A stretch of DNA of 64,000 nt from Henricia sp. BOLD:AAB3569 (Eukaryota > Echinodermata > Asteroidea > Spinulosida > Echinasteridae). The notes under the pieces were generated by a model, which did no database searches, was not told where the DNA came from, and was given only the letters and a program-made list of their open reading frames with translations. The DNA lies in assembly GCA_037783545.1 (NCBI GenBank), contig JBBELK010000525.1:2170001-2234000 (forward strand). The letters run 5' to 3'. Position numbers and translations under genes: made by a program. Below, in pieces: positions 6,584-41,283 of this stretch (position 1 is the stretch's first letter; every line of letters begins with the position of its first letter).

Positions 6584-6632
6584 AATTTGTTTAAATCTGT
6601 TTGTGTACTTTGTAACTTTAACTGCTTTGTAA

Positions 6633-13047: not shown

Positions 13048-13095
13048 TAAAGTGTGGTCGGGGGTCGTACTGCTCTCACTTTCTCACAGGGCATC

Positions 13096-13353: not shown

Positions 13354-13388
13354 ATGAACCATAAGTTGTCTAAAAAACTACATGTATA

Positions 13389-14027: not shown

Positions 14028-14061
14028 GACTGTTATTTTAATATTGTGCTCATTAATCATC

Positions 14062-16243: not shown

Positions 16244-16250
16244 ACTTGGT

Positions 16251-17576
16251 TCAGTTTGAATAGTCTATTAGAATATTACGGCTCCTGTCCACTTCCAGTA
16301 TAGATTCGAATTCGCTGTAGACAATAACATTCACCGTGGTGGGCAATGCAACCGCAAATTTCAGTTCCAGCCGTAGATTACTGCGCTTGACCAAATTGAA
16401 ATGCGTTCCGCACGAAAGATCGGGAGACAGATCAAATGCAAACAACGAGTAACCTTCCCGGTACTCTTCTCTGTCGATTTGATTTCCAGTGTCCTGGTAG
16501 AGGGTATTTATCCCCGAAAATAATGTTTGGTAAGCCAGCGCTGTGGACTTATCTTTTCCCGTAAACTTCGGTTGTATCGGACGCCACGGCGTTTGTTCAT
16601 TGTCTACGTACAAACCCAGAAAATTCAACTCGTAATGTTTGAAATTGAATGGATTGCCTCTATAATCCCCATTGAAAGCAGTGTTATCCACCATTCCGAT
16701 CACCACGCGTCTAGGAATTTGCCCAAGAAATAGGTTTTCCCGCGTAAATGACTGATTTCCCCGTGGGATTGAAAAGGTTTTGACTTCCACCCGACGAATG
16801 GGATATTTGGCCGTGACTGTCTGAAGCATCTTAGCGTGGGCTAGCGCTACCTGTGAACTTATAGCCACCTTCCTCACGTACAACGCCGCGTCCATTATCT
16901 TGACTCTGTAATTACTATCCGGGGTCGGTGATAACAGACAAAAGGAATTTTTGCTCCGATGAAATTTTAATTTAAGGTTGACGCCGTTAAGAAGAAATCT
17001 ATCTTGAAAAAATACGTCTCCGTGAATTTGTCCGAGAAGGTCGACGACGCGACTCTCTTTGGTCAATTCATACCGCTGTTTGAGGCCGTCATTCCCAGCT
17101 GCGGCTTTGGGGTCGACGGTGTCCATTTTACCGGCGACATCCTTGTAAAACAACGACGAAGTCAGCTGGGAGCGCTTGGCAGCGGGTCCGTAAGTCAGCA
17201 ACGTCTCCAAGAGGGCACGGTATGGGTACGTATTGGAGGAGGATGAGATGAGTTTATCGTTCAGCGTGACGTCTACCTCGGAGAACATGGAGTGCAGGAA
17301 CAAGTTGACCGGTGCAACGGAGTCGTCTTCGTCCAGGTCAGTACCATTTTCTTTAACTATCTTCGCTTTGACGTTGAGCATGGTATTGGCCAAATCCAAA
17401 TATTGTTCGGTCGAACCGGTTATGTTAAACTCGATCAAATCGGAATCCACCACATTAGTCAGTGGATTGTATTGCACCCACTGGCCCTTTACAATCGATG
17501 TTTGAGTGGGAGGAACCGCAAACAGATCCAGTTCCGATTTCGTGCATTCGCACGAGTGCTTGCTGATAAATGCCAT
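16251..17576 (-). CDS. MCP: major capsid protein, double jelly-roll
   Basis: This 441-residue protein starts with the SELDLFAVPPTQTS block (about 14-27) that I know from Polinton major capsid proteins. It continues in the beta-rich pattern of double jelly-roll capsid proteins. It should form the trimeric hexons of an icosahedral particle. The ATG lies 2 nt after the stop of the upstream pVI-like gene. No breaks are visible. Confidence 0.92.
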   Translation of the reverse strand: MAFISKHSCECTKSELDLFAVPPTQTSIVKGQWVQYNPLTNVVDSDLIEFNITGSTEQYLDLANTMLNVKAKIVKENGTDLDEDDSVAPVNLFLHSMFSEVDVTLNDKLISSSSNTYPYRALLETLLTYGPAAKRSQLTSSLFYKDVAGKMDTVDPKAAAGNDGLKQRYELTKESRVVDLLGQIHGDVFFQDRFLLNGVNLKLKFHRSKNSFCLLSPTPDSNYRVKIMDAALYVRKVAISSQVALAHAKMLQTVTAKYPIRRVEVKTFSIPRGNQSFTRENLFLGQIPRRVVIGMVDNTAFNGDYRGNPFNFKHYELNFLGLYVDNEQTPWRPIQPKFTGKDKSTALAYQTLFSGINTLYQDTGNQIDREEYREGYSLFAFDLSPDLSCGTHFNLVKRSNLRLELKFAVALPTTVNVIVYSEFESILEVDRSRNILIDYSN

Positions 17577-17578
17577 AG

Positions 17579-17983
17579 TTAATAGTCGAATATGTCGGGG
17601 GTCCGCTTTCTCCGCTTGCCAGAAGTATTTCTGCCGGTTTTACCCCGCGCCTTTCTTTTTAAAGGTTTGCTGCGAGGTCCTGACACTTTTCTCTTTATCG
17701 TATCAGTTGCCCGATCAAACACTCGAGACCCCGCCTCTTTTAAGCGCTCTCTTGCGGCGGTCTTCACGTTTTGCCCGCTGAGGGCGTCTGACGCAATATG
17801 AACTCCTGTCCTTAATGCTTCTTTACCGAGACTTTTAGCCCCCTGCTTTAATAGTGGTAGGGCCGATCGAAATAACCCCCCAAGAATATTCCCGAGTCCA
17901 TAACCTTTCTGTATGCGGGCACCGCTGAAGAAGGTGCCCCCACCTCCGGCCTGATTTCGGTAGTACTGTTCGTAATTAATCAT
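17579..17983 (-). CDS. pVI-like small basic virion protein
   Basis: This 134-residue protein has a Gly-rich N-terminus (GGGGTFFSG). An amphipathic hydrophobic segment follows (about 30-48, NILGGLFRSALPLLK), then a Lys/Arg-rich tail (GKRRKR near the end). The layout resembles adenovirus protein VI or core precursors. ILGG followed by L (I33-G36/L37) fits the adenain cleavage rule (M/I/L)-x-G-G-x, and cutting there would release a 36-residue leader. It lies 2 nt from both neighbours (penton upstream, major capsid downstream). The role in membrane lysis is inferred. Confidence 0.75.
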   Translation of the reverse strand: MINYEQYYRNQAGGGGTFFSGARIQKGYGLGNILGGLFRSALPLLKQGAKSLGKEALRTGVHIASDALSGQNVKTAARERLKEAGSRVFDRATDTIKRKVSGPRSKPLKRKARGKTGRNTSGKRRKRTPDIFDY

Positions 17984-17985
17984 GT

Positions 17986-18741
17986 TTAATACAGAGACGG
18001 GCGAATTTTGCGGAAATGTAGTGCTATCGTGAGTTTCCCGCTTTGAAATGGTACTTTTACACCCGTGTCCTTCCTTATATCCACGTGAATAATTTCAAAA
18101 TTTTTAGTTTTCACAGGTATGTAATGAGGCGTCGTGAATGTGTGGGCGATGGTGTCTCCATACAAAACACCGGATGTCTGAAGCGGTACGACTCTCAACA
18201 AGGGGGCACTCGCATCTCCAACCAGCTGATTTTCCACAATGTCGCAGTAGACGTACATCCCGTAAAATCCATTGTTCACATCGATAGGAACTTCACCGTT
18301 TACGGTCTGATTCACCGATTTAAATTTTAACCCCAGCATGCGATACAGTTGCTCGTTAAAGTAGATGTACGCACCCGCCCGGAGACTTATGCGTATTTTA
18401 CCCGAATATTTATCCGATCTTATACTTATTCTCGATCTACCGGAGTCATTCATTTCGTGTGAGATTGCCTTCACTAAATCATCGATCGATTGGTAATAAC
18501 CGTTAGTTAATTTACCATGTATTTGATGGGCACCATCCGAGCTGTAAACGAAGGTGTCGTTTTCGGGCGTGATGTTGTACCACGTGAACGGGTAGTGAAT
18601 TTCCGTGATAGCCACTTCCCAGTTTCCCGTGAGATTAATCTGATCAACCAGGTGCGTCGTGTAACCCGACAATGTGTTGTTCGGGTATAGCGATACAGAA
18701 GCATTGCTCGGTAGCGTTACGTAGAATTGGGTACGAGACAT
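17986..18741 (-). CDS. mCP: minor capsid (penton) protein, single jelly-roll
   Basis: This 251-residue protein contains the CDIVENQLVGD block and a following PLLRVV that I recall from Polinton penton proteins. It starts with SRTQFYVTLPSNAS. It should occupy the five-fold vertices of the particle. It lies between integrase (10 nt upstream) and the pVI-like gene (2 nt downstream). The reading frame is intact. Confidence 0.9.
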   Translation of the reverse strand: MSRTQFYVTLPSNASVSLYPNNTLSGYTTHLVDQINLTGNWEVAITEIHYPFTWYNITPENDTFVYSSDGAHQIHGKLTNGYYQSIDDLVKAISHEMNDSGRSRISIRSDKYSGKIRISLRAGAYIYFNEQLYRMLGLKFKSVNQTVNGEVPIDVNNGFYGMYVYCDIVENQLVGDASAPLLRVVPLQTSGVLYGDTIAHTFTTPHYIPVKTKNFEIIHVDIRKDTGVKVPFQSGKLTIALHFRKIRPSLY

Positions 18742-18751
18742 GGTTATGTCT

Positions 18752-19825
18752 TTACTGACGATGATTCCTTACCCAACTGTTAAACTTGGTTGGATAACCA
18801 AGCCATTTAACGAAATATTCAGTTCTTCCATTCTTCTTGCGCGTGCGAATGACTCTCTCAACGCGGTAAACATCGTCACGTTTGTCCACCTTTTGTAATT
18901 CCTCCTCGTAAAACGTACCCAGGATCTCTTCTTCTGAATAATCTTGCAGTTTGTACACAGGTTTTTGTCTCAGGCCGATCATCTTCGACACCGTGAAGAT
19001 TTCCTCCGTCCACGCCGGGAGGTAAGACTTTTCAAACTTCATACGCTGTTTACTGATTCTCACTTGATCACCCATTTGAAACTTGAATACCATTGAGCTC
19101 GTTTTAGGCCCGTATAAATTTTTCCAGACCTGGCTCTCGTTCTCACCGTCCACCTCTGAAGGTTTCATCTTTATTGACCGATGATATGAACCGTTGTATG
19201 CTTTTACAATTTGTTGCAATACCGGAGCGTATTTGAGCGTATTTTTATATGTGAAATAGCGCCACATTTTCGATTTAAGAGTACGGTTAAACCTCTCGAC
19301 AACCGAGGCTTTTGTTTCACTGTTCGTAGTGTAGAAATGGATGTCTTTGCTCTTCAACAATTTTTGAAACTTCTTATTTGTGAATTCACTGCCTTTATCC
19401 GTGTGAATCATTATAGGTTTTCTCCCGCTGGATTTGATATTCCGTCTGAAAGCTTCTACCAATGTGTCACCCGTCTTGTTCTTTAAAGGAATCACCCAGG
19501 CAAACTTGGAGAACACGTCGATCCACGTCAGTAAGTATCTGTATCCTCCGTTATATTTTGCCAAGTTTGACAAGTCCGCTAAGTCCAGCTCGTGTATTTC
19601 ATCACGTCCGACTGCTAAAACTCTATTCCGCGAAAAATTCTTTCTGGCGGGTTTGTGCAGCGTGTACGTATCCTGTTTACGTAAGAAGTCTGTAATCTGC
19701 TTGCGCGTTATAACGTATTTGCCGTCACGTTTAACGGCGCGATAAAGTTTTTCTATGCTACCCAATCCGCTTTCATTATGAAAATTATAATACAGTTTTT
19801 TCAAATACTCATTTGTACTCTTCAT
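18752..19825 (-). CDS. INT: Polinton integrase with C-terminal chromodomain
   Basis: This 357-residue DDE recombinase inserts the element and makes the 6-bp duplication. Catalytic residues are D81 (HELDLADL), D143 (HTDKGSEF) and E177 (VVERFNR). The C-terminus carries a chromodomain (YRVERVI...YFVKWLGYP), known in other integrases to bind modified histones. I start at the ATG at 19825; an earlier in-frame GTG is unlikely in a eukaryote. The first 86 bases (codons 1-28 and part of 29) lie inside the right inverted repeat, so the gene start is duplicated at 6836-6921. It heads a tight cluster with the capsid genes. Confidence 0.95.
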   Translation of the reverse strand: MKSTNEYLKKLYYNFHNESGLGSIEKLYRAVKRDGKYVITRKQITDFLRKQDTYTLHKPARKNFSRNRVLAVGRDEIHELDLADLSNLAKYNGGYRYLLTWIDVFSKFAWVIPLKNKTGDTLVEAFRRNIKSSGRKPIMIHTDKGSEFTNKKFQKLLKSKDIHFYTTNSETKASVVERFNRTLKSKMWRYFTYKNTLKYAPVLQQIVKAYNGSYHRSIKMKPSEVDGENESQVWKNLYGPKTSSMVFKFQMGDQVRISKQRMKFEKSYLPAWTEEIFTVSKMIGLRQKPVYKLQDYSEEEILGTFYEEELQKVDKRDDVYRVERVIRTRKKNGRTEYFVKWLGYPTKFNSWVRNHRQ

Positions 19826-20077
19826 GTTGACGCAACGGGGTCTGCACACAGACTGATTTTATCATCACGCAAACAACAATTTATTTAATTAACCCAATTC
19901 ATTCTTTCTTTTATTTTCTCGAACAAATATTTACCAGAGAACGTTGACAAATTACAGTTATTATTATTATTATAACATGTTTTTATTTTTATTATTATTT
20001 TTACAAGAACTTTTACACAATTTTTATTTTACAAAGCAGTTAAAGTTACAAAGTACACAAACAGATTTAAACAAATT

Positions 20078-21031
20078 TTAACATTTATTATAACACACGT
20101 CGAAAAGCACAGATTCCCGTTTTTCTGGGATGTTCACGTGCTTGTCCACGTATTCAGTAAAAATACCGTTCGTGTGGTAAATTGTAGGATATGCTGTGGA
20201 TATGCTATCGATCTCACGAGCTTTTAAATTCCATGCCATCCTGCACGTTCCCAACCCCCTATCGATGATCTCACACAGCGCTATATCAAAGAATTGCTCG
20301 ATTTTAATCTCCATCGAATCCATCATACAGGCATGATTGCGCTGTGTGACATCATCGACAGGGGGCAAGCCGCACCCGTAGCAATGCCTCATACTGATTT
20401 CGTCTATTTTCTTAAGCACCGTCGGTACGAGTAGTGACTGGATTATATTAAACGAAAGTTCTTTTGCGTCCACCTCGGGGGCGGTTTGGTCTCCGTCTTG
20501 ATCTTGATCTTCCACGTCAATCTTCAGTTCTTTGCAGCCAGTGTCTGGGACGACGTCTTCTTCTTCTTCTTCTTCTTCTTCGTCAGCCACATCACGCTTC
20601 CTCTTCCTGCTCTCCAGTTCTTGAACAGCCTCATCGACCGCCTTGTTAATGGATGGTAACAGCTCCACCAGTCTCGCCCATTCATGGATACGTAGGTTGA
20701 TCCCTCGGGGGCCGCCCCAGAAAGTGCCGTCGCTGATGGGGCAGTATTCGCGGACCTTCACGTACACGTTATCTCTGAATGGCTCGACTACCACGTGGCG
20801 TACGTCGGTCATCTTAAACCTTCTTGAGGGATCAGCGTTGACTTCCCGTCTCACCGAGGGGGTGGCGTTGAACGACGGGGCCAACTTCACCTCAGCTCTG
20901 GCGGTCATCCTTCGTTGCAGACGCTGGAGGCGTTCCGGGTCCACCTTGGCCGTCACCGAGGGAGGGATGTACTCGCGAACCTCACGTCGGTTACCAGCTG
21001 CATCGTACTTAGGTGTGTAATAACCGGCCAT
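20078..21031 (-). CDS. PC4-like ssDNA-binding protein in Polinton TIR (right copy)
   Basis: Its 317 residues are identical to those of the gene at 5630-6583: PC4-like region at 74-135, SRKRKR at 141-146, poly-Glu, and the C217/C220/H233/C235 cluster. This copy lies 252 bp upstream of the integrase and points the same way, so it may share its promoter with the leftward virion cluster. Identity of the two copies implies recent insertion or continuing gene conversion between the repeats. Confidence 0.8.
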   Translation of the reverse strand: MAGYYTPKYDAAGNRREVREYIPPSVTAKVDPERLQRLQRRMTARAEVKLAPSFNATPSVRREVNADPSRRFKMTDVRHVVVEPFRDNVYVKVREYCPISDGTFWGGPRGINLRIHEWARLVELLPSINKAVDEAVQELESRKRKRDVADEEEEEEEEDVVPDTGCKELKIDVEDQDQDGDQTAPEVDAKELSFNIIQSLLVPTVLKKIDEISMRHCYGCGLPPVDDVTQRNHACMMDSMEIKIEQFFDIALCEIIDRGLGTCRMAWNLKAREIDSISTAYPTIYHTNGIFTEYVDKHVNIPEKRESVLFDVCYNKC

Positions 21032-21122
21032 CTTGATTTCTTGATTTCTTGCTTGCTTCGTAGTGTAGTGTAGAACAACGTAGATTCGTGAAATGAATTT
21101 GACGGATAACTCCAACAACGCT

Positions 21123-21130
21123 GTTTATAT
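21123..21130 (-). promoter_or_regulatory. TATA box of right PC4-like gene
   Basis: This is the exact mirror of ATATAAAC at 5531-5538, next to the CCAAT array. Confidence 0.65.
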
Positions 21131-21450
21131 GGCCATAAACCCACGCTTGCATAATCTGTCTCATCAAACCCAAGCTCCCCATTGGTCCTAAACCCACGCT
21201 AGCATTTCTGTCTCATCAACCCCCAAGCTTCTCATTGGCCCTCAACCCACGCTTGCTTAAGCTGTCTCATCAAACCCAAGCTTCTCATTGGCCCTCAACC
21301 CACGCTTGCATAATCTGTCTCATCAAACCCAAGCTTCTCATTGGCCCTCAACCCACGCTTGCATAATCTGTCTCATCAAACCCTAGCTTCTCATTGGCCC
21401 TCAACCCACGCTTGCATAATCTGTCTCATCAAGCCCAAGCTTCTCATTGG
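21131..21450. repeat. 53-bp tandem array with CCAAT boxes (right copy)
   Basis: Mirror of 5211-5530. It has six ATTGG (reverse CCAAT) words with the same 53-bp spacing. Confidence 0.9.
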
Positions 21451-22072: not shown

Positions 22073-22937
22073 CTATTCGCTGGCAGAGTGTGACGTCACT
22101 TTCGCCCAGTTCGCATTCACTGCTACTGCTTTGACACTATACTTGTATGACAACGGGTATGTCCAGTACATTCGTTTCATTACACACATGCCACAAGGGG
22201 AACATTTTCCGCGCGTTTTTCTGTTACATGTACAGGTAGGTATAACCAGTGAAAATCATTATTGTTCATATTTGTAAATAATTTCTTCAAAAAGAGTACC
22301 GGTAATAATAAAATACGCAAACACAATGAAAGTAAAACGTAAGCGTGAACCAGTGACCATTGCAACGGTCCAGTGACCCCGATGTGACGTCAGACTCTGC
22401 CGGCGAATTGAGTCCACATTTATATAATTTATTGTCCTATTTTAACTCCCCATATTAAACGCAAACAACATGAAGCCTAATTTTCCCACCAAAGAAAAGA
22501 ACAAATTAAACCAAAAGCATTTCTTTCCCGGAAATTTCATTTAAAGGACGTCGCTGTTTATATTGCCAAACTGCCTCATCTGACTTCACTTAGTATTGCG
22601 ATAATATTCCCGGCGTTCAACTTCGCCAAGATTTTGACCGTCTGAAATAAAGATAGAAAAGAAACTCTTCTCTAAAACACAGTAATGACAATATTAACGT
22701 CAAATTATTAATGTGACTTCTCCAAACGCTTTGTTCTCTGTTTGGATGACATTTATAGGTAAAGGACCATATCGATTTCTGTGGGTAAAATTATTATTTT
22801 ATTTTTATAATTTTCAAAATGAGCGCTAATCGTTTATGATGTTTTGTCACTTAAATTTAGGCCAATTGTATCATTTGCAATGACCCAATTTTGTTTTTCA
22901 TGAATTGACAAGAAAACCTTACTCAAAGTGTTGATAG
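22073..22937. other. stretch without recognisable gene
   Basis: AT-rich host DNA between the Polinton side and the Gypsy element. No coding sequence or strong repeat is seen. Confidence 0.5.
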
Positions 22938-23676
22938 TGTAACGAAACAGTATATTATAGTAAACATAGGGATCATGGTATTTGTGCATAATTAGGTTGC
23001 GCGCGCAGGGGAGGTCACCGACTGTCGCCTGTGCACGTAACCGTGGGCGCGCATGTGACTGCCAGCGGGCAGGGAGAGCGATTCTAGAGAGCTTCAAAGA
23101 CGGACGAGTTGTTCGAGTGTTTACCGGCAAAAGTAACGAACCGTTCGTCGGTAAGTTGTGCAGCAGCAATTGGTTTATTTATTGACAGTGTGTCTGCAGG
23201 CGTAATAGGCAGCGCTGCGGTGGGACGTGTGTCGTTCCTAATAGCGTTTGATGCTTATGCCTTTTCGAGTTCGGCGCGGAATAGTATCCAAGTTTGGAAC
23301 CCGGGCGCTCCACATTCTTTGACTAGTTCACGGTGCTAAATTAACTGAGTAAGGGCACGCGGACTGCGGTAGAAGTACCGATTTAGGCTAAAGGTGGCGT
23401 GTGCTGCAAGGTACGTTGTGTCGAGCTGTAGGTCAGCTCAAGAAGTTCGCCATTTTGAGCGAGACAACGTACTGGTAAATGTGTATTACTTACCCTACGT
23501 GCAGTACTTAATCAACGTGCCTTACTTACTCAATGTGCAGTACTTACTAATGAGCGTGCATTACTTACACATCGGGCATTGCTACATGCTGTGGAGTCGT
23601 GCATAACTTAAGCTCGTACATGTGCGTCACGTACAGAGCTGTTATTCACAGACTTGTGGAATAATGTTAATTGTTG

Positions 23677-24030
23677 CCTGTGCATAACTTACCGAGCTGC
23701 CGTGTAACTTACTGCGAGTGCGTGTAACTTACCGAGCTGCTGTGTAACTTACTGAGCTGCTGTGTAACTTACTGCTAGTGCGTATAACTTACCGAGCTGC
23801 TGTGTAACTTACTGCGAGTGCGTGTTACTTACCGAGCTGCTGTGTAACTTACTGAGATGCTGTGTAACTTACTGCTAGTGCGTGTAACTTACCGAGCTGC
23901 TGTGTAACTTACTGCTAGTGCGTGTAACTTACTGAGCTGCCGTGTAACTTACCGAGCTGCCGTGTGACTTACTGCTAGTGCGTGTAACTTACCGAGCTGC
24001 CGTGTGACTTACTGCGAGTGCGTGTAACTT
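23677..24030. repeat. 20-bp tandem array in 5' LTR
   Basis: About 17-18 units of roughly 20 bp, each GTGTAACTTAC(C/T)G followed by AGCTGC or CGAGTGC-like variants, in mixed order. Every unit contains ACTTAC, which reads GTAAGT on the minus strand, the consensus of a 5' splice site. Confidence 0.9.
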
Positions 24031-24450
24031 ACCGGCTACGTTATATTGAACCAGCTGCACAACACTGACTGTAAGGTTCATTGATCCCTAGAGTGTATTA
24101 CTTACTTGTGTGTCTGTCGCCCGAAGTAAGCCCTGAGAAACAAAGTGTCAGTCATAATACAAGAAAGCCCTATATAAGACCACCTTTTCTTTATTTCACT
24201 AAGTAATTGTTTACACCTACAATTAAGCCACCCAACGTGTTGAACATTAATAAAACTGTCATAAGTTGCTGACAAAGTCCTTGTCCTTCCCTTGCTTTAT
24301 TTTATGAGTCTTGATTTGTCATAGGGCCTGACAACCGATATCCAACCGGCGGTATATTTCCTCCAAAACGGACCAGCACCTTTTGCCTTGAGGTCGCTTA
24401 GAGTAGACTCTCGCCCGAGGAAGAATCTTAGTTTAAGGGAATTTGTCGTC

Positions 24451-24570
24451 GCCACATATGGTGTCAGACTTGATCCTCCCAGACTGAGGTTCGGCCCGGG
24501 GAAACACGCCACATATGGTGTCAGACTTGATCCTCCCAGACTGAGGTTCGGCCCGGGGAAACCCGCCACA
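24451..24570. repeat. 57-bp duplication at LTR 3' end with primer-site-like starts
   Basis: GCCACA(T/A)ATGGTGTCAGA occurs at 24451, 24508 and 24565, exactly 57 bp apart. The third instance runs into the real primer-binding site. So the LTR end holds two internal copies of the LTR/primer-site junction. Confidence 0.9.
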
Positions 24571-24572
24571 AA

Positions 24573-24590
24573 TGGTGTCAGAAGTGGGAT
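24573..24590 (+). promoter_or_regulatory. primer-binding site, tRNA-Leu
   Basis: TGGTGTCAGAAGTGGGAT begins two bases after the LTR. It is complementary to the 3' end of animal tRNA-Leu (...ATCCCACTTCTGACA plus CCA) as I remember it. It primes minus-strand DNA synthesis. Confidence 0.85.
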
Positions 24591-24691
24591 GGTTGGAATT
24601 GGTTAAGTTGGCCTTGTGAAATAATCTGATCAGGGATTCGTAGGGTAGAGTTTGCCGGTATTGGTACTAGCCAGAGGAAGCCGGGAGCAAT

Positions 24692-26335
24692 ATGACCGAG
24701 GACGCTGCAAAGAACCAGGGTGCCTCAGGTACAGAAAATGAGTTACATAGGCTTAGGTTGGAGACCCAGCTGCTGAGGTGGGAAAAAGATCACTCTGCAA
24801 AGCAGTTGGAAGCTGCCATGAAAGAGTTGAACTCTGAAAGTGTTAGGGGTTCCGTAAGTGCAGTGGACGAGAGCACGCCTAAGGTGGCCAGACGTGCTAA
24901 GTATTGGGTTGACTCTGAAATTGAGTTACGGTTACCCATTGAAGGGACATCTGGGTATGTCTCAGGTACGACAAAAGAGTTGTCGTATGCCGGCCTATCG
25001 CCCGAAGGAGCGACGGCGCCGAAGCAAAGGAAAGATGTGATTCACGTAGCAAGCACGCCTCTTAGAGTGGGCTCAGGGGCATTGCCTCGAGCCGATTGTA
25101 CACCTATAAGGGAGGCAGATGGCTCTGTTGCGGATGATCTGATGTTGTTTTTGTCAGGTCAAAGTAATCCAGAACAGGGGTGGAAAGGGACCAACCCGTT
25201 CTTGGTGGATAGGGAGGTGGAAACCCCCAAGAAATTACATAGCGAACTGTTAAGTTTTGCAACTCGTCCTGACGAGAAATGCAGGGACAGTTCAGCTGAG
25301 AACAAGTCGAGTTCCTCAGTGGGGCCATGGCCACTGAGAAGAAATTCTAAAAGAATCTATGGAGGTGATAAGAGGGAATCTCGTCCGGAGCGCGAAGATC
25401 GGCGCCCAAATATTACCCCTGATAGGTACAGTGGTAAGGTACCATGGGAAGAATACCACCGACATTTTGAATCATGTCGACGAGTGAACCAGTGGAACGA
25501 GAAGCAAGCTGCAGACTACTTAACAGCTAGTTTGCAAGGCAATGCTCTCCGAACATTAGGTGATTCGGGACAAGATCACAGTTATGGTGGAATTGTCAAG
25601 TTGCTGGAGAGACGTTTTGGGTCTGGCCGACAAAGTGAAAATTTCTTGGTCGAGCTGAGACACCGACGTCAGGGCCACAAAGAGTCCTTGCAAGAGATGG
25701 GACAATCAATACGTGAGTTGACGTCGAAGGCGTACCCTGAAATACAGGAAGACGCCCGAGACCGACTTGCGAAAAATCACTACCTTGATGCGGTAGAAAG
25801 TCAGTCAATACGGGAGGGTATAAATAGGGCCCGACCCAAGACCCTGGATGAAGCTATCCGGGCGGCACTTGAGACTGAAAACTTAGAGAACGTCGAGATG
25901 CAAAGAGTGCTCGACAGAAAGCCCGCAAAATTTGCGAGGGCTGCGGATCCCGGTGTCGAACAAAGATTGGGAATGGTAGAGAAGAGTTTTAGTGAGCATG
26001 CCCGAACCTTGCAAACACTAGTTGAAACTCTAAAAGATTTGACAGATCGAGTTCAGGGCCAAGGTTCAAACCAGGGCGTGTCTGCAAATAAGACACAAAA
26101 AGTCCCTACGGTGGAGCCGGGTGGTCGAAAATGTTTCAATTGTGGAGAGAAAGGGCATTTCGCTCGTCAATGCAAACTGCCCCGAAGACAGAATTTCCAG
26201 AATCAGGGAAACGCCAGTCAGCCTCTCGTTGGACCCGTGGGAAGGCTGGATATGCGAGAGGGTCCAAAAGGCGACATGGTGGCATTGACAGAGAAGCAGA
26301 GAAGCGGAGGAGAGAGGGAGACAGGCAAAGAATGA
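24692..26335 (+). CDS. gag: Gypsy Gag polyprotein
   Basis: This 547-residue protein packages the element RNA. The N-terminus is helical and charged. A capsid-like region spans about 240-420, and one CCHC zinc knuckle (C481, C484, H489, C494; CFNCGEKGHFARQC) lies near the end. The ATG at 24692 is 101 bp after the primer site. Its TGA overlaps the pol ATG as ATGA (26332-26335). No break is seen. Confidence 0.93.
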   Translation: MTEDAAKNQGASGTENELHRLRLETQLLRWEKDHSAKQLEAAMKELNSESVRGSVSAVDESTPKVARRAKYWVDSEIELRLPIEGTSGYVSGTTKELSYAGLSPEGATAPKQRKDVIHVASTPLRVGSGALPRADCTPIREADGSVADDLMLFLSGQSNPEQGWKGTNPFLVDREVETPKKLHSELLSFATRPDEKCRDSSAENKSSSSVGPWPLRRNSKRIYGGDKRESRPEREDRRPNITPDRYSGKVPWEEYHRHFESCRRVNQWNEKQAADYLTASLQGNALRTLGDSGQDHSYGGIVKLLERRFGSGRQSENFLVELRHRRQGHKESLQEMGQSIRELTSKAYPEIQEDARDRLAKNHYLDAVESQSIREGINRARPKTLDEAIRAALETENLENVEMQRVLDRKPAKFARAADPGVEQRLGMVEKSFSEHARTLQTLVETLKDLTDRVQGQGSNQGVSANKTQKVPTVEPGGRKCFNCGEKGHFARQCKLPRRQNFQNQGNASQPLVGPVGRLDMREGPKGDMVALTEKQRSGGERETGKE

Positions 26336-29300
26336 TTACACTGCCTGGTCTTAATTTGAGCCCCCGCTATGGTCTGTTTGTGGAAGGGACGGTAAGAGCG
26401 ACCAAGTGCCGATTTCTTATTGACACTGGTTCTACCGATACCCTAATCAGTAGTACGGTGTACTACCAGATTCCCAAAGAACAGAGGCCCGTCTTTGAGA
26501 CGGATGACATTCGGGTTAAGCAAATTGACGGTACTCCCCTCGCAGTATTGGGTACTGCTTGGGTTGAGATCCAAATTGGCAAAATTACGCACTCGGTAAA
26601 GACAGTCTTTACTGAAATGCAGTATCCCGCAATTTTGGGCATGGATTTCCTCGTGTCCACGGGTGGCAATTTGGATTTCCGAGCAAAGGAGCTCAGGATC
26701 AATGGAGAGAGAATTGGTTGCATTAGCAGTGCAGGAGAACCATTCGTTGGTCGAGTGGTAGTGTCCCAAACGACAGTGATCCCGGCGGGTCACGAAGCAG
26801 TAGTTCCGGGTATAATGGCCCGAAGAAGCGAAGAGTTGGCAGGGCCAGCCATAGTTGAACCCGTAGAAGGAGGTGGTGACCTGGCAAAGAAGGGCTTAGT
26901 GTTAGCCAGATCCTTGGTCGAATTTGGGTCACCAGTTATTCCTCTGCGAGTTTTAAACCTGGGTAAAGAAACCAGAGTTGCCAAAAAAGGGACAACCGCT
27001 GCTGTTATTACCCAGGTTGGGGCTGGTTCCGTGCAAGATAAGAGTTGCAGCGAAGGGAACGCCGTGGAGGGGTTTCCCTTGCATTTGCGAGATCTCTATG
27101 AGAGGGGTACGGCCAATATAGAGGCTAAGTACCATGAGGAAGTCCGCAACTGTCTTGTTGACTTTCAAGATGTCTTCTCAAAGGGAGAAGGTGACATAGG
27201 AAGAACCCATGTGGTGGAACACCACATAAGGACTCATGAAAATGTCGGGCCAATGAAAGAAAGGCCTAGACGTCAGCCTTATAGTCACCAACAAGAAATA
27301 CAAAGACAGGTCGGGGAACTGCGGAAGAGAGGAGTAATTGAACCCTCTAACAGTCCCTGGGCCGCGAATGTCGTCCTGGTAGACAAGAAAGACGGTAGTA
27401 AGCGCTTCTGCGTCGACTACCGAAGACTAAACGCAGCCACGATAAAGGATGCGTATCCGGTGCCTCGCATCGATGAATCATTTGACGCATTGGGAGGGGC
27501 TAAATGGTTCACTACGCTAGACCTAGCCTCTGGTTACTGGCAAGTGGCATTAGACAAAGACGCCAGTAAAAAGTCTGCGTTTGTGACACGAAGTGGGCTG
27601 TATCAGTGGAAATGCATGCCGTTTGGGTTGTGCAATGCGCCGGCAACCTTTGAACGGCTCATGGAAACAGTTATGGCCGGTCTTCAGTGGGACATTCTGC
27701 TGATATATTTGGATGACGTCATTGTCTTCGGTCAAACAGAGACTGAAGCAATAGATCGTCTCCGCGTCGTTTTGGACAGGTTAAGACAAGCTGGGCTTAA
27801 ATTAAAGCCCAGTAAGTGTCATTTGCTGAAAAAGTCAGTGAATTACCTGGGACACATTGTGTCGACAGAAGGTGTGGCCACCGACCCTAAGAAGGTCAGG
27901 GCAGTGGCTGAGTGGCCAGTCCCGAAATGCTTAAAGGAAGTACGTAGCTTCCTGGGACTAGCGTCCTACTATAGGAAGTACATTCGTGGATTCGCCAAGA
28001 TTGCAAGCCCATTGCATGCCCTCACTGAAAAGTCAAGGACCTTCATGTGGAGTGAAGCGTGCCAAGAGGCATTTGAGGAGCTGAAGGGTAGACTCCAAAC
28101 CGCCCCAATTCTGGCATATCCGCTCCCTGATGGCGACTTTATTTTAGACACAGATGCCAGTGGTGACGGCATCGGGGCAGTGTTGTCGCAGATCCAGGAT
28201 GGCGAAGAGAAAGTTCTGGCGTACGCCAGTCGTAAACTCAGTAAACCAGAGCGCAACTACTGTGTGACGCGCAGAGAGTTGCTAGCTGTAGTAGTACACT
28301 TGAAATATTTCAAGCAGTACTTATACGGCAGAAAACTGAAAGTTAGGACCGACCACGCCGCATTGCGGTGGCTCTTGAATTTTAAGAACCCAGAAGGTCA
28401 GGTCGCCAGATGGATTGAAACCATCTCGCAGTACGACGTCAGCATTGAGCATAGGCCGGGAAAGAAGCATACCAATGCTGATGGGCTGTCACGGCAGCAG
28501 TGTAAACAGTGTGGTCAAGGGTTAGATGTTGATCCCGAAATGGTACCTTCGGGTGATACTCAAGATACCGTGGTTAGGGGAGTCGTAGCCCAGTCACAGG
28601 TGTCGAAGGAAGCCCTTAGACAGGCTCAATTAGAAGATAAGTTGCTGGGTTGGATTGTGAAACCCAAAGAAGAAGGGCGGGACCGCCCTAAATGGGAAGT
28701 AGTGTCGCACATGGCAGCAGCGTGCAAGACTTATTGGTCAATGTGGGACCAATTGGAGGTTCGTGACGGGCTCTTGTGCAAGCGCTGGGAGTCCGATGAT
28801 GGACAAGTGGTGAAATGGCTGGTAGTGCTGCCTGAGAAATTTAGAGAGGGCGTGTTTGAGGAATTGCACGGTGGCCAAGTCAGTGGGCACTTGGGACTCA
28901 GTAAAACGCTGAGAAAATTGAAGTGCAGGTACTACTGGCCAGGGATGACTGCCGACCTCCGGTCATACCTCAGAATATGTGATGTCTGTGCAAGGAGGAA
29001 GTCTCCCTCTAAAAAGAGGAGAGCTCCTCTGCGGCAGTATCAGGTCGGGGCCCCACTTGAACGGATAGCTATAGATTTGCTCGGGCCACTGCCCAAAACG
29101 GACAGTGGTAACCAATGCGAACCGTCTGTTACAGATCGACTCGCGAAGAGAAAAATGCCGCGAGGAAGAGGTAACACACGCTCCCACAAGGAGCAAGTAA
29201 AAATAAGAAAATACAAGTGCCGACAGTGCCCGGCATGGTATTTACACCGCCAGAGCCTGTACAAGCACATCAAAGAACGGCACCAGGATGAGCAGGTCCT

Positions 29301-29901
29301 GAAGTGCAACGTGTGTTCCTACAAGGCGGGGGCAGCTGAGACTCTACAGCGCCACATGTCCATACATGCCAGTGAGGTTAAAAACGGACCTCCTGATGCC
29401 GTGGAAACAGCCGGAATCGCCAGAGTAGTGGTAACTGAGGGACAGGGCTCAACCACAGAAGCCACTCCCCAAGTAGCCGCCCAGCAAACAGCGCCGGATG
29501 TCCCCGAAGTCAATATCAGTTATGACCCGGTTGTGATATCGTTGTCTCCGACACCCATATCTCCTCTGCGTTACAACCCTTCTTCACCTGGGGACGGTGG
29601 TACCAAGTCTATGGCTGCTGCAGCACCCAGTGGGAAGCTGAAAGCGATGGAGGCACTGAGGCAGAACGTCATGACATCCCCAGGCTCCTCTACATCCTCC
29701 TCTTTTTCGATCGTGGAAGAAGACCCCGGCGAAGCGACAAGTGAGGCTACTCGACCGGCGTCCACGCAGCTAGCCACGTTCCAGAAGACCTCTACACTGC
29801 GGGTCCTCCTGGGAGGACGTACAGTGAAGAACGAGACGTGGAACGATACCTACGTAAAGCGCATCGTAGTGGACGAACACGGAGATCCGGTGTCCTTCTA
29901 G
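26332..29901 (+). CDS. pol: Gypsy Pol lacking integrase core, fused to C2H2 zinc-finger protein
   Basis: This frame has 1,189 codons from the ATG that overlaps the gag stop. Domains in order are aspartic protease (D31-T-G, later ILGMDF), reverse transcriptase (Y459-L-D-D), RNase H (D606, D608) and the integrase HHCC finger (H846, H853, C883, C886). The first integrase Asp is at 915 (IDLLGP). Just after DSGNQ (about 927) homology stops. The next catalytic Asp and Glu are absent. Instead come two C2H2 fingers (starting C963; CRQCPAW and CNVCSYK) and a low-complexity Ser/Thr/Pro/Ala tail. Pol could also be reached by -1 shifting inside gag, but no canonical slip site is visible. The fusion is read directly in one uninterrupted frame. 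Confidence 0.9.
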   Translation: MITLPGLNLSPRYGLFVEGTVRATKCRFLIDTGSTDTLISSTVYYQIPKEQRPVFETDDIRVKQIDGTPLAVLGTAWVEIQIGKITHSVKTVFTEMQYPAILGMDFLVSTGGNLDFRAKELRINGERIGCISSAGEPFVGRVVVSQTTVIPAGHEAVVPGIMARRSEELAGPAIVEPVEGGGDLAKKGLVLARSLVEFGSPVIPLRVLNLGKETRVAKKGTTAAVITQVGAGSVQDKSCSEGNAVEGFPLHLRDLYERGTANIEAKYHEEVRNCLVDFQDVFSKGEGDIGRTHVVEHHIRTHENVGPMKERPRRQPYSHQQEIQRQVGELRKRGVIEPSNSPWAANVVLVDKKDGSKRFCVDYRRLNAATIKDAYPVPRIDESFDALGGAKWFTTLDLASGYWQVALDKDASKKSAFVTRSGLYQWKCMPFGLCNAPATFERLMETVMAGLQWDILLIYLDDVIVFGQTETEAIDRLRVVLDRLRQAGLKLKPSKCHLLKKSVNYLGHIVSTEGVATDPKKVRAVAEWPVPKCLKEVRSFLGLASYYRKYIRGFAKIASPLHALTEKSRTFMWSEACQEAFEELKGRLQTAPILAYPLPDGDFILDTDASGDGIGAVLSQIQDGEEKVLAYASRKLSKPERNYCVTRRELLAVVVHLKYFKQYLYGRKLKVRTDHAALRWLLNFKNPEGQVARWIETISQYDVSIEHRPGKKHTNADGLSRQQCKQCGQGLDVDPEMVPSGDTQDTVVRGVVAQSQVSKEALRQAQLEDKLLGWIVKPKEEGRDRPKWEVVSHMAAACKTYWSMWDQLEVRDGLLCKRWESDDGQVVKWLVVLPEKFREGVFEELHGGQVSGHLGLSKTLRKLKCRYYWPGMTADLRSYLRICDVCARRKSPSKKRRAPLRQYQVGAPLERIAIDLLGPLPKTDSGNQCEPSVTDRLAKRKMPRGRGNTRSHKEQVKIRKYKCRQCPAWYLHRQSLYKHIKERHQDEQVLKCNVCSYKAGAAETLQRHMSIHASEVKNGPPDAVETAGIARVVVTEGQGSTTEATPQVAAQQTAPDVPEVNISYDPVVISLSPTPISPLRYNPSSPGDGGTKSMAAAAPSGKLKAMEALRQNVMTSPGSSTSSSFSIVEEDPGEATSEATRPASTQLATFQKTSTLRVLLGGRTVKNETWNDTYVKRIVVDEHGDPVSF
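29116..29901 (+). other. foreign C2H2 zinc-finger coding segment in pol
   Basis: After the integrase Asp region the frame reads a new protein. An in-frame ATG at 29155 (MPRGRGNTRSHKE) could be its original start, giving 248 residues. Two fingers have C-x2-C-x12-H-x4-H and C-x2-C-x12-H-x3-H spacing. The remainder is Ser/Pro/Thr-rich and ends DEHGDPVSF. It looks like a captured cellular or accessory gene without introns. I do not recognise the parent gene. Confidence 0.7.
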
Positions 29902-30410: not shown

Positions 30411-32043
30411 TGTAACGAAACAGTATATTATAGTAAACATAGGGATCATGGTATTTGTGCATAATTAGGTTGCGCGCGCAGGGGAGGTCACCGACTGTCG
30501 CCTGTGCACGTAACCGTGGGCGCGCATGTGACTGCCAGCGGGCAGGGAGAGCGATTCTAGAGAGCTTCAAAGACGGACGAGTTGTTCGAGTGTTTACCGG
30601 CAAAAGTAACGAACCGTTCGTCGGTAAGTTGTGCAGCAGCAATTGGTTTATTTATTGACAGTGTGTCTGCAGGCGTAATAGGCAGCGCTGCGGTGGGACG
30701 TGTGTCGTTCCTAATAGCGTTTGATGCTTATGCCTTTTCGAGTTCGGCGCGGAATAGTATCCAAGTTTGGAACCCGGGCGCTCCACATTCTTTGACTAGT
30801 TCACGGTGCTAAATTAACTGAGTAAGGGCACGCGGACTGCGGTAGAAGTACCGATTTAGGCTAAAGGTGGCGTGTGCTGCAAGGTACGTTGTGTCGAGCT
30901 GTAGGTCAGCTCAAGAAGTTCGCCATTTTGAGCGAGACAACGTACTGGTAAATGTGTATTACTTACCCTACGTGCAGTACTTAATCAACGTGCCTTACTT
31001 ACTCAATGTGCAGTACTTACTAATGAGCGTGCATTACTTACACATCGGGCATTGCTACATGCTGTGGAGTCGTGCATAACTTAAGCTCGTACATGTGCGT
31101 CACGTACAGAGCTGTTATTCACAGACTTGTGGAATAATGTTAATTGTTGCCTGTGCATAACTTACCGAGCTGCCGTGTAACTTACTGCGAGTGCGTGTAA
31201 CTTACCGAGCTGCTGTGTAACTTACTGAGCTGCTGTGTAACTTACTGCTAGTGCGTATAACTTACCGAGCTGCTGTGTAACTTACTGCGAGTGCGTGTTA
31301 CTTACCGAGCTGCTGTGTAACTTACTGAGATGCTGTGTAACTTACTGCTAGTGCGTGTAACTTACCGAGCTGCTGTGTAACTTACTGCTAGTGCGTGTAA
31401 CTTACTGAGCTGCCGTGTAACTTACCGAGCTGCCGTGTGACTTACTGCTAGTGCGTGTAACTTACCGAGCTGCCGTGTGACTTACTGCGAGTGCGTGTAA
31501 CTTACCGGCTACGTTATATTGAACCAGCTGCACAACACTGACTGTAAGGTTCATTGATCCCTAGAGTGTATTACTTACTTGTGTGTCTGTCGCCCGAAGT
31601 AAGCCCTGAGAAACAAAGTGTCAGTCATAATACAAGAAAGCCCTATATAAGACCACCTTTTCTTTATTTCACTAAGTAATTGTTTACACCTACAATTAAG
31701 CCACCCAACGTGTTGAACATTAATAAAACTGTCATAAGTTGCTGACAAAGTCCTTGTCCTTCCCTTGCTTTATTTTATGAGTCTTGATTTGTCATAGGGC
31801 CTGACAACCGATATCCAACCGGCGGTATATTTCCTCCAAAACGGACCAGCACCTTTTGCCTTGAGGTCGCTTAGAGTAGACTCTCGCCCGAGGAAGAATC
31901 TTAGTTTAAGGGAATTTGTCGTCGCCACATATGGTGTCAGACTTGATCCTCCCAGACTGAGGTTCGGCCCGGGGAAACACGCCACATATGGTGTCAGACT
32001 TGATCCTCCCAGACTGAGGTTCGGCCCGGGGAAACCCGCCACA
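30411..32043 (+). repeat. 3' LTR of Gypsy element
   Basis: 1,633 bp, the same start, end and internal arrays as the 5' LTR at an offset of 7,473 bp: 20-bp array at 31150-31503 and 57-bp duplication at 31924-32037. No difference was found in the parts compared. Confidence 0.95.
31150..31503. repeat. 20-bp tandem array in 3' LTR
   Basis: Same order of unit variants as 23677-24030. Confidence 0.9.
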
Positions 32044-32308
32044 ATAGCAATGGTAACAAACACCACATGAATTAATTTCCGTCCAAAATGGTATTTCATG
32101 CTGGAAATTGACAACCGAAGGTGGTCTTCTATATTTACCATTCACTTGTACACAAAATCCATATATAGATTTTCAAGGTTTTCTGAAGCACTGATGCATC
32201 TAAGTAGCCAACATTTCTTCAGGCTAGTTTACCAACATTCTTCCTTAAATATGTTACACTCTTATTCCACGAATCTGTAAAATGTTTTATCTTGCATAGG
32301 GCCTTTGG
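32044..32308. other. stretch without recognisable gene
   Basis: Begins with the ATAG target duplication. No feature is seen otherwise. Confidence 0.4.
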
Positions 32309-33171: not shown

Positions 33172-33317
33172 TCTCAAAGGCACGGGCTCATCAGCAATGC
33201 GCGCACGCCAATCTCGTGCCACGAAATACGCAGCTCCATGCCTTTGCTATAGAGCTGCGTATTTCGTGGCACGAATTTGGCGCGCGCGCATTGCTGACAA
33301 GCCTGTGCCTTTAACCT
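33172..33317. mobile_element. near-perfect palindromic MITE, copy 1
   Basis: The arms from AAAGGCACGGGCTC to GCCTGTGCCTTTAA pair over nearly their whole length. They include GCGCGCAC/GCGCGCGC and TCGTGCCACGAAATACGCAG, leaving a tiny loop near 33240. A second copy lies at 49764-49903. Confidence 0.85.
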
Positions 33318-34525: not shown

Positions 34526-35384
34526 TGAAAGAAATGGCGACTAGTAGGCGGAAATAAATCACCAAATCACAGTATTTTAATTATCGATGCTCCAGGAATT
34601 GCCTATTAATTAAAGTTGCAGGTCAAAGGTCAGGTGATGGTGGGGTTAAGGTTCATGGATGAAGGAACTGGCAGAGTTGCAATATTGACTGGAAGTAGCT
34701 CCTTCTACGGGTTTAAGTCATGCAAGGTTTCATGCCAGAGAAGGTTGCAGTATGCCAGGTCTGGTTAGGCGTGTCTCTTTAGGTCATGTGGGTTCTCGTT
34801 AAGTAATGGTGGTTCTCGGTAGGCCATGGTTCTACAAGAAACAAAATTATACAATCATAAGTTTACATGCAAAATGACGGTAATACATGTACATGTATAT
34901 GCATGGCGGTACATGCACCCAAAATACTAGTTATAAATTTGCCTTATTAAACAAATCTTCGGATACATCAGCAAGAAAATGAGTCCTTACTTGTCCTCAT
35001 AACTAATTAAGAGATTAGGCATTACACAACAAAACCTTATATTATACGAACGCTAAATTACATGAAAAACATGCGGGTGTTGCATGGACTATGCATTAAC
35101 ACAACGGCAACATTGTAAACAATTACGTGATAAAACTAGCCAACAAATTATCTCTTTTATCATCTAAATGAGTACTCACTTTAACTAATCACGCATGGCA
35201 CGGAAGGAGAACCTTCCAAATGACTAGCTAATTACAGTTAGTCTGAGATTTATGATTAATTGGATGGATAATTGTGGTTAAAATTGGCACAATTATGTAA
35301 ACACAACATGTTTATCGGTGATCATCAGAATCAATGTCAACAGAGGGCGCTATACCACTTTAACGGTGCTCTCACTTTCGCACA
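34526..35384 (-). repeat. 3' LTR of BEL element (minus orientation)
   Basis: In element sense it starts TGTGCGAAAGTG and ends TTTCA. It matches 41284-42142. Confidence 0.95.
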
Positions 35385-35466: not shown

Positions 35467-38400
35467 TTAGGCTTGGTCGACTTCACCGCCGAGTAGGTTA
35501 TCGTCGCTGACCTCTGGGAGGCGTATCAGCCGGGCCACGGGTCGAGTGTAGGTCTTATTCCGAACCTTGACGTTGGCAGTACGGATACGACCATCTGAAC
35601 CAGGAAAGGTTTCTGCGACTCTTCCTATGGGCCACTGAGCTCTACTTAGTGCCGGGTCGATGATCATGACGACGTCATTGGTAGTCAAGTTAGGACGCTC
35701 CACCTGCCATTTCTGACGCCTTTGAAGGGTTGGGAGGTACGATTTGACGAAGCTGGCCCAGAAGCGGTCAGCGAGGACCTGTGAGTGTTTCCAGCGTCGT
35801 CGGCCAAGTAGATCTCTGGCAGGATAGACGACTTGAGGCAAGGAGGCATCAAGCCGCCCCATCAGGAGGAGGTTTGGAGTAACTGGGTCAGGATCCTCAA
35901 CATTCGATGAGACATATCCCAGAGGCCTCGAATTCAAGATTCCCTCCACCTCGATAAGCACAGTGCGTAGTACCGACTCCGGAACGGTCTGTCCATTCAA
36001 GACGACTTTGAGGCCATCCTTCACACACCTGATCTCCCGTTCCCATGCTCCTCCAAAGTGTGGGGCTCTCGGAGGGTTGAACGCAAACTTAACTTGGTAC
36101 TTGGAGAGCTCCTGTTGGAGACTCGGCTCCATAGCGGCAAAGGCATTTTGTAGTTCGGATTCACCTCCCTTAAAATTGGTGCCGCAATCACTGAGGATCT
36201 CCTGGGGCCTTCCTCGTCTAGAAATGAACCGCCTGAAGGCCATCAGGAAGGCATCGGTGTCAAGGCTGTCTAGTAAGTCAAGATGGAGGGCTCTGGTTGT
36301 CATGCATTTAAAGATGATTCCCCAACGCTTCTCCGTCCTTCGCCCGATCTTGCAGGTCATTGGACCGAAACAATCTACCCCAGTTGAGTAAAACGGAGGC
36401 TTAAACAGACGAAGGCGCGCTGGCGGTAAATCTCCCATCTTGGGAACTTGGGGGCTAGCTCTCCACCTTTGACAGGCGAAGCACTTGCGTTGATGTTTGC
36501 GGACTGCTTCCCTCCCGCGCAGTATCCAGAACTTGCGTCGGATCTCCGCGAGTACTCGCTCTGGTCCGTAATGCAGCAATTTCTCATCGTAGTCGCCAAT
36601 GAGAAGGCGGGTTATGGGGTGCACTGGATCCAGCAGGATGGGGTGCTTGGTATCTTTAGCTAGGTCCTGGGTACGACGAAGACGTCCTCCTACTCGGATG
36701 AGACCACAAGACTCATCATACTCTGGAGCAAGCTGCAGAAGTCTGCTGCTGCGAGGAATCTCTCTGCCTGCCTTAATGCAAGCAAGCTCCTCAGTGAAGG
36801 AATCTTCCTGGGCACGCTGAAACAGGTGGGTCTCAGCTTCTGTCCGCTGGTCGGCTGTGGGGTCAGCATCTTCGGCCGCCCCATGAAGACGTTGTACAGT
36901 GGCCGTAACAAGGTCATCCCATGTGTCGTACTCGGATGGGTCTGGTAGGTTGTTTGGCTGTATGGTAATTACACCACAGAAGACAGACCTCTTGTATTCA
37001 GATGTATCATCTGTCTGAGTGGCTGGGTGAGCTGGCCACATATCGGATGTCAGTCTTAGGAAGGGAGGACCATCTCTCCATCTGCTGGCACGGCCGAGGT
37101 CAACTAAGGTCTTGCCTCTGGTGAGGTCATCAGCAGGGTTATTCTTCGTGTCGACGTACCGCCACTTGTCAATGTCGGTGAGTGTTTGAATTTCTGCAAC
37201 ACGAGTGCCTACGAAGACCTTGTAGCGGCAGGATTCGGATTTCAACCAGGTAAGGACTGTGGTCGAATCACTCCACATGACGACGTCACTGATTGGAAGA
37301 GTCAACTCTTTCCGGAGGAGCTCAGCCAGCTGGGCACCTGCTAAAGCTGCAGACAGCTCCAGTCGAGGCATGGAGAGTTGTCGTTTGGGGGCAACACGGG
37401 ATCTGGCCATTATGAAGCTGGCGTGGATGTTGTGTGCTTTATCTTCCGTGCGGAGATAAGCTACGGCACCGTAGACTCTTTCGGATGCGTCACAGAAAAT
37501 GTGGAGCTGCCGGTAGGCTACTTCTGGATCAACATCAGTGGGTGTATAGCACCTGTTGAGTTTGACTTCAGTCAGGTTGGGCAGTTCATTCTCCCAAGCT
37601 TGCCATCGCTCTCGGATCTCTCCGGCTTCAAGGGGATCATCCCAACTGCGCTTCGTCTTCCACAGGTCTTGGACAAGAACTCTCGCTCGGGCGGTGAATG
37701 GAGTAAGATACCCTATGGGATCATACTGGCTGGCCAGTATTTTATACATGTTCCTCATGGTGAGACAATCGTAGGTAATTGGTCGATGGCGATACTTCAG
37801 GATATCTGAGCTGCACTCCCACAGCAATCCCAAGGTAGCTTCTGTGGAGTTTGCTTCCCCAAAGGTTAACCATAACTCGCAGCCATCTGACCGAGCCTCG
37901 GGTGGCAGATTCTCTACTACATCAGGGATGTTGCTGGCCCATTGGCGTATTTCAAAGCCAGCCCCAGCAAGAAGGTCTCGCATGTTATGGACGAGAGTTT
38001 TGGCATCTTCCTTCGTTGGTAGGCTTCGCAGGCAGTTGTCGACATAGAAAGACTCATCCACTGCACTTGCAACTTGTGGACAATCTTCCTGGTGGTCGAG
38101 GGCATGCTTCCTCAGGGCAAAGGAAGCGCAGCAAGGACTACAGGTAGAGCCGAAAGGAAGAACCTGCCATTCATAGATGTCTGGTTCCTTATTAGCCTGT
38201 AGGTTTCGCCACAGAAAGCGGAAGAGGCATCGGTCCTCTGGCAGCAGGCACACTTGATGAAACATCGCCTTGATGTCACCGGAGATGGCAACTTTATCCT
38301 GCCTGAAGCGAAGTAGTACGCCGATGAGTGACGCACCAAGGGTCGGTCCAGGGAGGAGATGCTCGTTGAGGACTAGGCCATCATACCGGAAAGAGCAGTT

Positions 38401-41250: not shown

Positions 41251-41283
41251 AGGTCGCTGGTTCGAATCCGGCTCGAAGGACCA
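41245..41283 (-). promoter_or_regulatory. extended primer-binding site copying tRNA-Tyr 3' half
   Basis: Read on the plus strand, 41250-41283 equals 31 bases of the 3' end of animal tRNA-Tyr(GTA) plus CCA as I remember it: GGTCGCTGGTTCGAATC, then CGGCTCGAAGGACCA. With one mismatch the match extends to 41245. A normal primer site needs about 18 bases. It fills the leader and overlaps the start codon at 41250. Confidence 0.85.

What the first reader, a model, noticed from the sequence alone, without database searches (positions are those of the whole stretch)
29070..29901. Gypsy pol frame in which the integrase core is replaced by a C2H2 zinc-finger protein
The frame is continuous through the integrase HHCC finger and first catalytic Asp, then reads two C2H2 fingers and a 170-residue Ser/Pro/Thr-rich tail up to a clean stop. 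This resembles retroviral gene capture. With apparently identical LTRs, the chimera itself must have been reverse-transcribed and inserted recently using an integrase supplied in trans. The fingers might even give DNA targeting.
Basis: partly seen in the sequence, partly recalled or inferred. Interest (0 to 1): 0.75.

Follow-up and report, generated by a model that had tools for sequence, protein, structure and literature searches.

The report
Deleted Gypsy copy exposing resident zinc-finger gene
The odd fusion is a recently copied, internally deleted jumping gene; its zinc-finger part is not a newly captured host gene but a third gene that several related jumping-gene families in this genome carry, probably to control their own expression.

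Summary
The sequence observation is right: an open pol frame (26092-29901) runs through the integrase H2C2 finger, breaks at 29117 and continues into two C2H2 fingers and a Ser/Pro-rich tail, between identical 1633-bp LTRs. Recent gene capture is refuted. Four sister copies in the same genome carry a complete integrase, a pol stop, then the same zinc-finger ORF ("ORF3") as a separate gene; the window copy lacks the 1183-1188 bp between. One other locus shares the pol-side break and filler, so the deleted form had been copied before. ORF3 also lies behind Gypsy integrases of other families, 60-65% identical in integrase but 24-37% in ORF3. It keeps both fingers and LSP[TC]PISPL in 5 of 5 aligned families, is under purifying selection in family A, and in 5 of 7 loci its ATG follows the locus's best splice-acceptor-like site. 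Most likely it encodes a nuclear DNA-binding regulator of the element, made from a spliced mRNA (inferred). Ten library searches showed no such animal element.

The parts
22934..22937 (.). 5' target-site duplication ATAG
22938..24570 (+). 5' LTR, 1633 bp, TGTAACGA...CCGCCACA
   Evidence: identical to 30411-32043
23684..24034 (+). array of about 20-bp repeats in the LTR (TRF periods 40/60/100), upstream of a TATA-like box
   Evidence: TATA-like CTATATAAG at 24170 and AATAAA at 24249
24573..24590 (+). putative primer binding site TGGTGTCAGAAGTGGGAT; same string follows the family B 5' LTR (tRNA identity not tested)
24671..26335 (+). gag frame (first in-frame ATG 24692) with CCHC knuckle
26092..29901 (+). 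pol frame, -1 relative to gag: protease, RT, RNase H, integrase H2C2, then fused to ORF3
29117..29125 (+). deletion junction: pol side ends at 29117, 7-nt filler 29118-29124, ORF3 side from 29125; 1183-1188 bp present in 4 other copies are missing here
29125..29134 (+). remnant of the splice-acceptor-like site before ORF3; simple score 4.3 in an intact copy (L002), -1.1 here
29155..29901 (+). ORF3, 248 aa, two C2H2 fingers plus Ser/Pro-rich tail; a separate gene in intact copies
29218..29283 (+). finger 1 (C-x2-C-x12-H-x4-H)
29305..29367 (+). finger 2 (C-x2-C-x12-H-x3-H)
29542..29568 (+). LSPTPISPL motif; LSP.PISPL in 5 of 5 families of alignment A1, degenerate in family F
30411..32043 (+). 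3' LTR
32044..32047 (.). 3' target-site duplication ATAG

Best explanation
The feature is an internal deletion, most likely made by template switching of reverse transcriptase, in a Gypsy LTR retrotransposon whose intact relatives have three genes: gag, pol and a sense C2H2 zinc-finger gene (ORF3) between pol and the 3' LTR. The deletion removed the integrase core and tail and joined the pol frame in phase to ORF3. The deleted RNA was copied and inserted with integrase from intact relatives. Shown: the three-gene anatomy, the deletion, its relative at a second locus, ORF3 behind integrases in several families, purifying selection in family A, splice-acceptor-like sites. Inferred: template switching, integrase in trans, that ORF3 is translated from a spliced mRNA (about 0.75), and that it is a nuclear, sequence-specific DNA-binding regulator of the element's own transcription or silencing (about 0.5).
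For: Intact copies: L002-L005 run through 385 aa from the anchor to a pol stop, then ORF3 as a separate ORF; the missing segment is 1184, 1183, 1183 and 1188 bp. The junction query is covered in one piece only at the window and at C276. Target-site duplications in 7 of 7 copies with both outer flanks read, including 3 of 3 deletion-bearing ones (window, L006, L007). L006's joint has an 8-bp microhomology GAAGAGGT. Other families: 12 of 18 hit loci examined have a Gypsy integrase match upstream of ORF3, and 2 of 2 further finger-only hits sampled. Cys/His of both fingers and LSP.PISPL invariant in 5 of 5 families of A1. Nonsynonymous/synonymous ratios 0.28-0.48 in 14 of 15 pairs of six copies. 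The acceptor-like site near the ORF3 ATG is the best of 115-170 AG sites in 5 of 7 loci and second in one. The profile matches CTCF (2.8e-18) and the two-finger Tramtrack domain (8.6e-06).
Against: No RNA or protein data. The acceptor ranks only 30th in family D; no donor was identified. The second locus (C276) shares the pol side and the filler but differs from the window over about 10 bases on the ORF3 side, so the two joints are related, not identical. ORF3-LTR-array binding is not general: TRF reports no array inside family B's 992-bp LTR (C475 copy). Six of 18 hit loci showed no integrase upstream; family F's motif is degenerate. A single-sequence AlphaFold model was poor (mean pLDDT 42.8). 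The 7-nt filler is unexplained.
Confidence: 0.85

Rival explanations
1. Recent retroviral-style capture of a host C2H2 gene by one Gypsy copy.
For: The window copy alone reads as a pol-zinc-finger chimera with identical LTRs.
Against: The same ORF is a separate gene behind complete integrase in four sister copies and, far diverged, in other Gypsy families.
Confidence: 0.02
2. The deletion is a spliced subgenomic RNA that was reverse-transcribed: a donor inside the integrase joined to the ORF3 acceptor.
For: An acceptor-like site lies before ORF3; families A and E broke within a few bases of the same integrase codon.
Against: The window joint keeps the acceptor's own TCTGTTACAG and adds a 7-nt filler, so it is not an exon-exon joint; the family E joint lies inside ORF3, after the fingers.
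Confidence: 0.07
3. ORF3 is a genomic-RNA export or packaging factor, like CERV of Cer1, rather than a transcriptional regulator.
For: CERV is encoded by a spliced Cer1 mRNA, is nuclear and is required for genomic RNA export (PMC10309623, abstract and passages); ORF3 has splice-acceptor-like sites; some C2H2 fingers bind RNA (recalled).
Against: CERV has three predicted structured domains and a possible C4-type finger, not C2H2 fingers; the best profile matches of ORF3 are DNA-binding C2H2 proteins.
Confidence: 0.25
4. The pol-ORF3 fusions are selected, functional proteins that spread because the fusion helps or interferes in trans.
For: In-frame fusions in family A (window) and family E: one joint at four places, 99-100% over 161 bases, with open frames of 1607 and 1130 aa at two of them, and another joint at C163 (925 aa).
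Against: At the other two family E places the open frames holding the tail are 204 and 182 aa. The L006 and L007 joints are out of frame. The E fusions have lost the fingers. C276's ORF3 is frameshifted. One deletion in three is in frame by chance.
Confidence: 0.08

Closest known systems
Ty3/Gypsy (Metaviridae) LTR retrotransposons
   Same: LTRs with TG...CA ends, 4-bp duplication, gag with CCHC knuckle, pol order PR-RT-RH-IN
   Different: a sense C2H2 ORF3 is added; the window copy lacks the integrase core
Additional ORFs (aORFs) of plant Gypsy elements, e.g. TRP28 of Retand (PMC11963269 passages; PMC7264820 abstract and introduction)
   Same: [quoted passage not shown] TRP28 is predicted to bind DNA; about half of the recently active Retand elements have tandem repeats between pol and 3' LTR
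   Different: TRP28 is antisense and known only from flowering plants; ORF3 is sense, C2H2, with splice-acceptor-like sites
CERV of Cer1, C. elegans (PMC10309623, abstract and passages)
   Same: accessory nuclear protein from a spliced mRNA of an LTR retrotransposon (for ORF3 both points are inferred)
   Different: no C2H2 fingers; exons 1-3 and 5 share the reading frame of the Cer1 polyprotein
env of errantiviruses; retroviral transactivators such as Tas or Tax (recalled)
   Same: third gene 3' of pol from a spliced mRNA (env); self-encoded activator of the LTR (Tas/Tax)
   Different: ORF3 has zinc fingers and a Pro/Ser tail instead of an envelope protein; activation untested

Membership tests
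Ty3/Gypsy LTR retrotransposon | paired LTRs with 4-6 bp target-site duplication | tested here: met
Ty3/Gypsy LTR retrotransposon | gag with zinc knuckle and pol order PR-RT-RH-IN | tested here: met
   (window, IN truncated); complete IN reading frames in 4 sister copies, (these were read, not scanned with Pfam)
Ty3/Gypsy LTR retrotransposon | placement in a named clade by an RT tree | not tested
   no reference set of named elements was used
[quoted passage not shown]
Recent retroviral-type gene capture | identifiable host parent gene with introns | tested here: inconclusive
   (150 of 783 candidates scored, 36 matches): element copies and weak C2H2 hits; no parent stood out
Gypsy with conserved sense aORF between pol and 3' LTR | ORF in most copies and in related families, under purifying selection | tested here: met
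   (family A only)
Gypsy with conserved sense aORF between pol and 3' LTR | expression from a spliced mRNA | not testable with these tools
   only acceptor-like sites seen
Errantivirus (env-bearing Gypsy) | third gene encodes an envelope protein | tested here: not met
   ORF3 is a C2H2 protein and no envelope family is among the Pfam matches of the 5 members; no transmembrane prediction was run
Chromovirus | chromodomain at the integrase C-terminus | not tested
   the window copy lacks that part; complete integrases were not scanned for it

The most novel reading that the evidence does not exclude
A broad Gypsy clade carries a long-resident, fast-evolving, spliced C2H2 gene that acts as a self-encoded transcription or anti-silencing factor on its own LTRs, and repeated pol-ORF3 deletions generate spreading parasites of that system.
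Probability: 0.3. Interest if true: 0.7.

Novelty: new variant of a known kind. Interest (0 to 1): 0.48.

Why it matters
LTR retrotransposons are usually thought to depend on host transcription factors. A conserved, element-encoded C2H2 gene in several Gypsy families would mean that they bring their own DNA-binding regulator, as complex retroviruses do, and gives an arms-race system that can be tested. The deletion lineages show how such elements shed integrase and are still copied, presumably at the expense of intact relatives.

Tried and rejected
Recent gene capture: rejected, ORF3 is resident. Assembly error: unlikely. Fossil splice product: disfavoured. General LTR-array binding by ORF3: not upheld. 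TRF finds no array inside family B's LTR (C475 copy); it does find arrays downstream of ORF3 in C (both loci, short), D (one of L075 and L078; L082 has one only inside the ORF3 region) and E (both loci), but the LTR borders of C-E were not determined. Spread to other species could not be tested: IMG/VR scans with P0001 and with alignment A1 gave 4 and 45 pattern matches, none confirmed, and no other eukaryote genome is searchable here. The structure model of ORF3 was too poor to search with. NCBIfam gave one irrelevant weak hit. Ten paper searches: in their listings and in the passages read I saw no animal Gypsy element with a C2H2 third gene; the library lacks most subscription journals, and Repbase was not searched. 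Rfam and tRNA scans of the window gave nothing.

Full report
Observation. The pol frame 26092-29901 is open. Pfam finds protease, RT, RNase H and the integrase H2C2 finger (8.5e-19) and lists no integrase core. After 29117 the frame enters ORF3, 248 aa from the ATG at 29155, with two C2H2 fingers and a Ser/Pro-rich tail. The LTRs (22938-24570, 30411-32043) are identical over 1633 bp and the element is flanked by ATAG on both sides.

Sister copies. The window lies in a held genome of 740 Mb. A DNA search with 29116-29901 gave 10 places. In L002-L005 pol continues through a complete integrase to a stop, and ORF3 follows as a separate ORF. The segment missing from the window copy is 1184, 1183, 1183 and 1188 bp. 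In these 4 copies gag and pol are open in the pieces read.

How the deletion arose and moved. A query over the junction gave 17 places: two covered in one piece (window, and C276 at 91%), seven with the pol side only, five with the ORF3 side only, and three on the pol side at 83%, which are family B. A 17-base pattern of pol side plus filler, one mismatch allowed, hit only the window and C276, both without mismatch. On the ORF3 side of the filler the two differ over about 10 bases, so they share an origin but one has changed since. The C276 copy is 97% identical to the window over 317 bp of pol and 95% in ORF3, starts only near 27354 and has a frameshifted ORF3. The deleted form was thus copied after the deletion; integrase in trans is inferred. 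Two other family A copies have different deletions: L006, with an 8-bp microhomology, and L007; both joints are out of frame. Target-site duplications are present in 7 of 7 copies with both outer flanks read (window, L002-L007). LTR pairs: window and L005 identical; L003 no mismatch and 7 gap columns; L002 one mismatch; L004 one mismatch and 2 gap columns; L006 no mismatch over the 1177 bp of 5' LTR read; L007 12 mismatches and 72 gap columns. In family E a joint of integrase start to ORF3 tail occurs at four places at 99-100% (sequence read at C1047 only), inside open frames of 1607, 1130, 204 and 182 aa. C163 joins the RNase H end to the ORF3 tail in frame. The A and E breaks lie a few bases apart in the integrase, just after the first catalytic Asp; I cannot explain this, nor the 7-nt filler CGAACCG.

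ORF3 as a shared gene. A protein search with the window's ORF3 scored 150 of 783 candidates and gave 36 matches. Of these, 12 were left out as family A copies or fragments (L053-L063, L067) and 6 had no locus; the other 18 were examined, one of them (L066) again a family A fragment. 12 of 18 have a Gypsy integrase match upstream. The six without: L066, L069, L073, L074, L077 (a 3000-aa frame with further fingers) and L080 (family F). A search with the family E protein scored 150 of 289 candidates and gave 146 matches. Two of its finger-only hits were sampled and both lie behind an integrase; the rest were not examined and may include host genes. Among eight sequences of five families the integrases are 60-65% identical between families and ORF3 24-37%. 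Both trees separate D+E from A+B+C (support 0.94 and 0.96), but the order within A-C is unresolved in the integrase tree (0.27), so congruence is suggestive only. Invariant in 5 of 5 families of A1: the Cys and His of both fingers and LSP.PISPL; in family F the motif is degenerate.

Selection and expression. Six family A copies with usable ORF3 (L001-L006; L007 and L008 dropped as broken) gave ratios 0.28-0.48 in 14 of 15 pairs; the last pair has two nonsynonymous and no synonymous differences. Variable codons: 14 synonymous only and 15 nonsynonymous; a crude binomial gives P = 0.0045, ignoring shared ancestry. A simple acceptor score (weights recalled, not fitted) ranked a site within 40 nt of the ORF3 ATG first among AG sites of the locus in A, C, both E loci and G, second in B and 30th in D. 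In the window copy that site is damaged, 4.3 in L002 against -1.1. No donor was sought systematically.

Mechanism. A two-finger C2H2 protein with a basic start in A and B, a Ser/Pro tail, and matches to CTCF and Tramtrack fingers fits a nuclear DNA-binding regulator. The 20-bp repeats of the family A LTR lie upstream of a TATA-like box and would suit such a protein, but family B's LTR has no array. RNA export, as for CERV, is the main rival.

What is known. Plant Gypsy aORFs (PMC7264820 abstract and introduction; PMC11963269 passages) and CERV (PMC10309623 abstract and passages) are the closest precedents seen. In PMC2774666, PMC12477816 and PMC8220671 I read passages only and saw no C2H2 third gene.

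Verdict. The finding as stated is an ordinary deletion derivative. The third gene behind it is a new variant of a known kind and worth following.

Noticed in passing
window 5211-21450: A large element with inverted ends (mirrored 53-bp arrays 5211-5531 and 21130-21450, identical 348-aa ORFs at both ends), a long DNA-polymerase-like ORF 8377-13047, ATPase-like and integrase-like ORFs: looks like a Polinton/Maverick (recalled gene set, not family-tested).
   Followed up: no
window 35467-41298: 1943-aa minus-strand gag-pol frame between matching repeats at 34774-34830 and 41532-41588: looks like a BEL/Pao element (recalled).
   Followed up: no
window 24450-24582 and 31923-32043: A 57-bp unit at the LTR 3' end is doubled in the window copy and appears once in the other copies' LTR ends that were compared; it contains a PBS-like string, as if the LTR grew by slipping over the LTR/PBS border.
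   Followed up: partly
L083 (C1047) and C297:1390219, C104:503815, C883:104847: Family E pol-ORF3 joint without fingers, shared by four places at 99-100% over 161 bases; only C1047 was read.
   Followed up: partly
window 56928-57665: Host-like ORF resembling a haem peroxidase (recalled, not searched).
   Followed up: no
window 33176-33312: Inverted repeat with 64-nt arms, 89% complementary, 9 nt apart.
   Followed up: no
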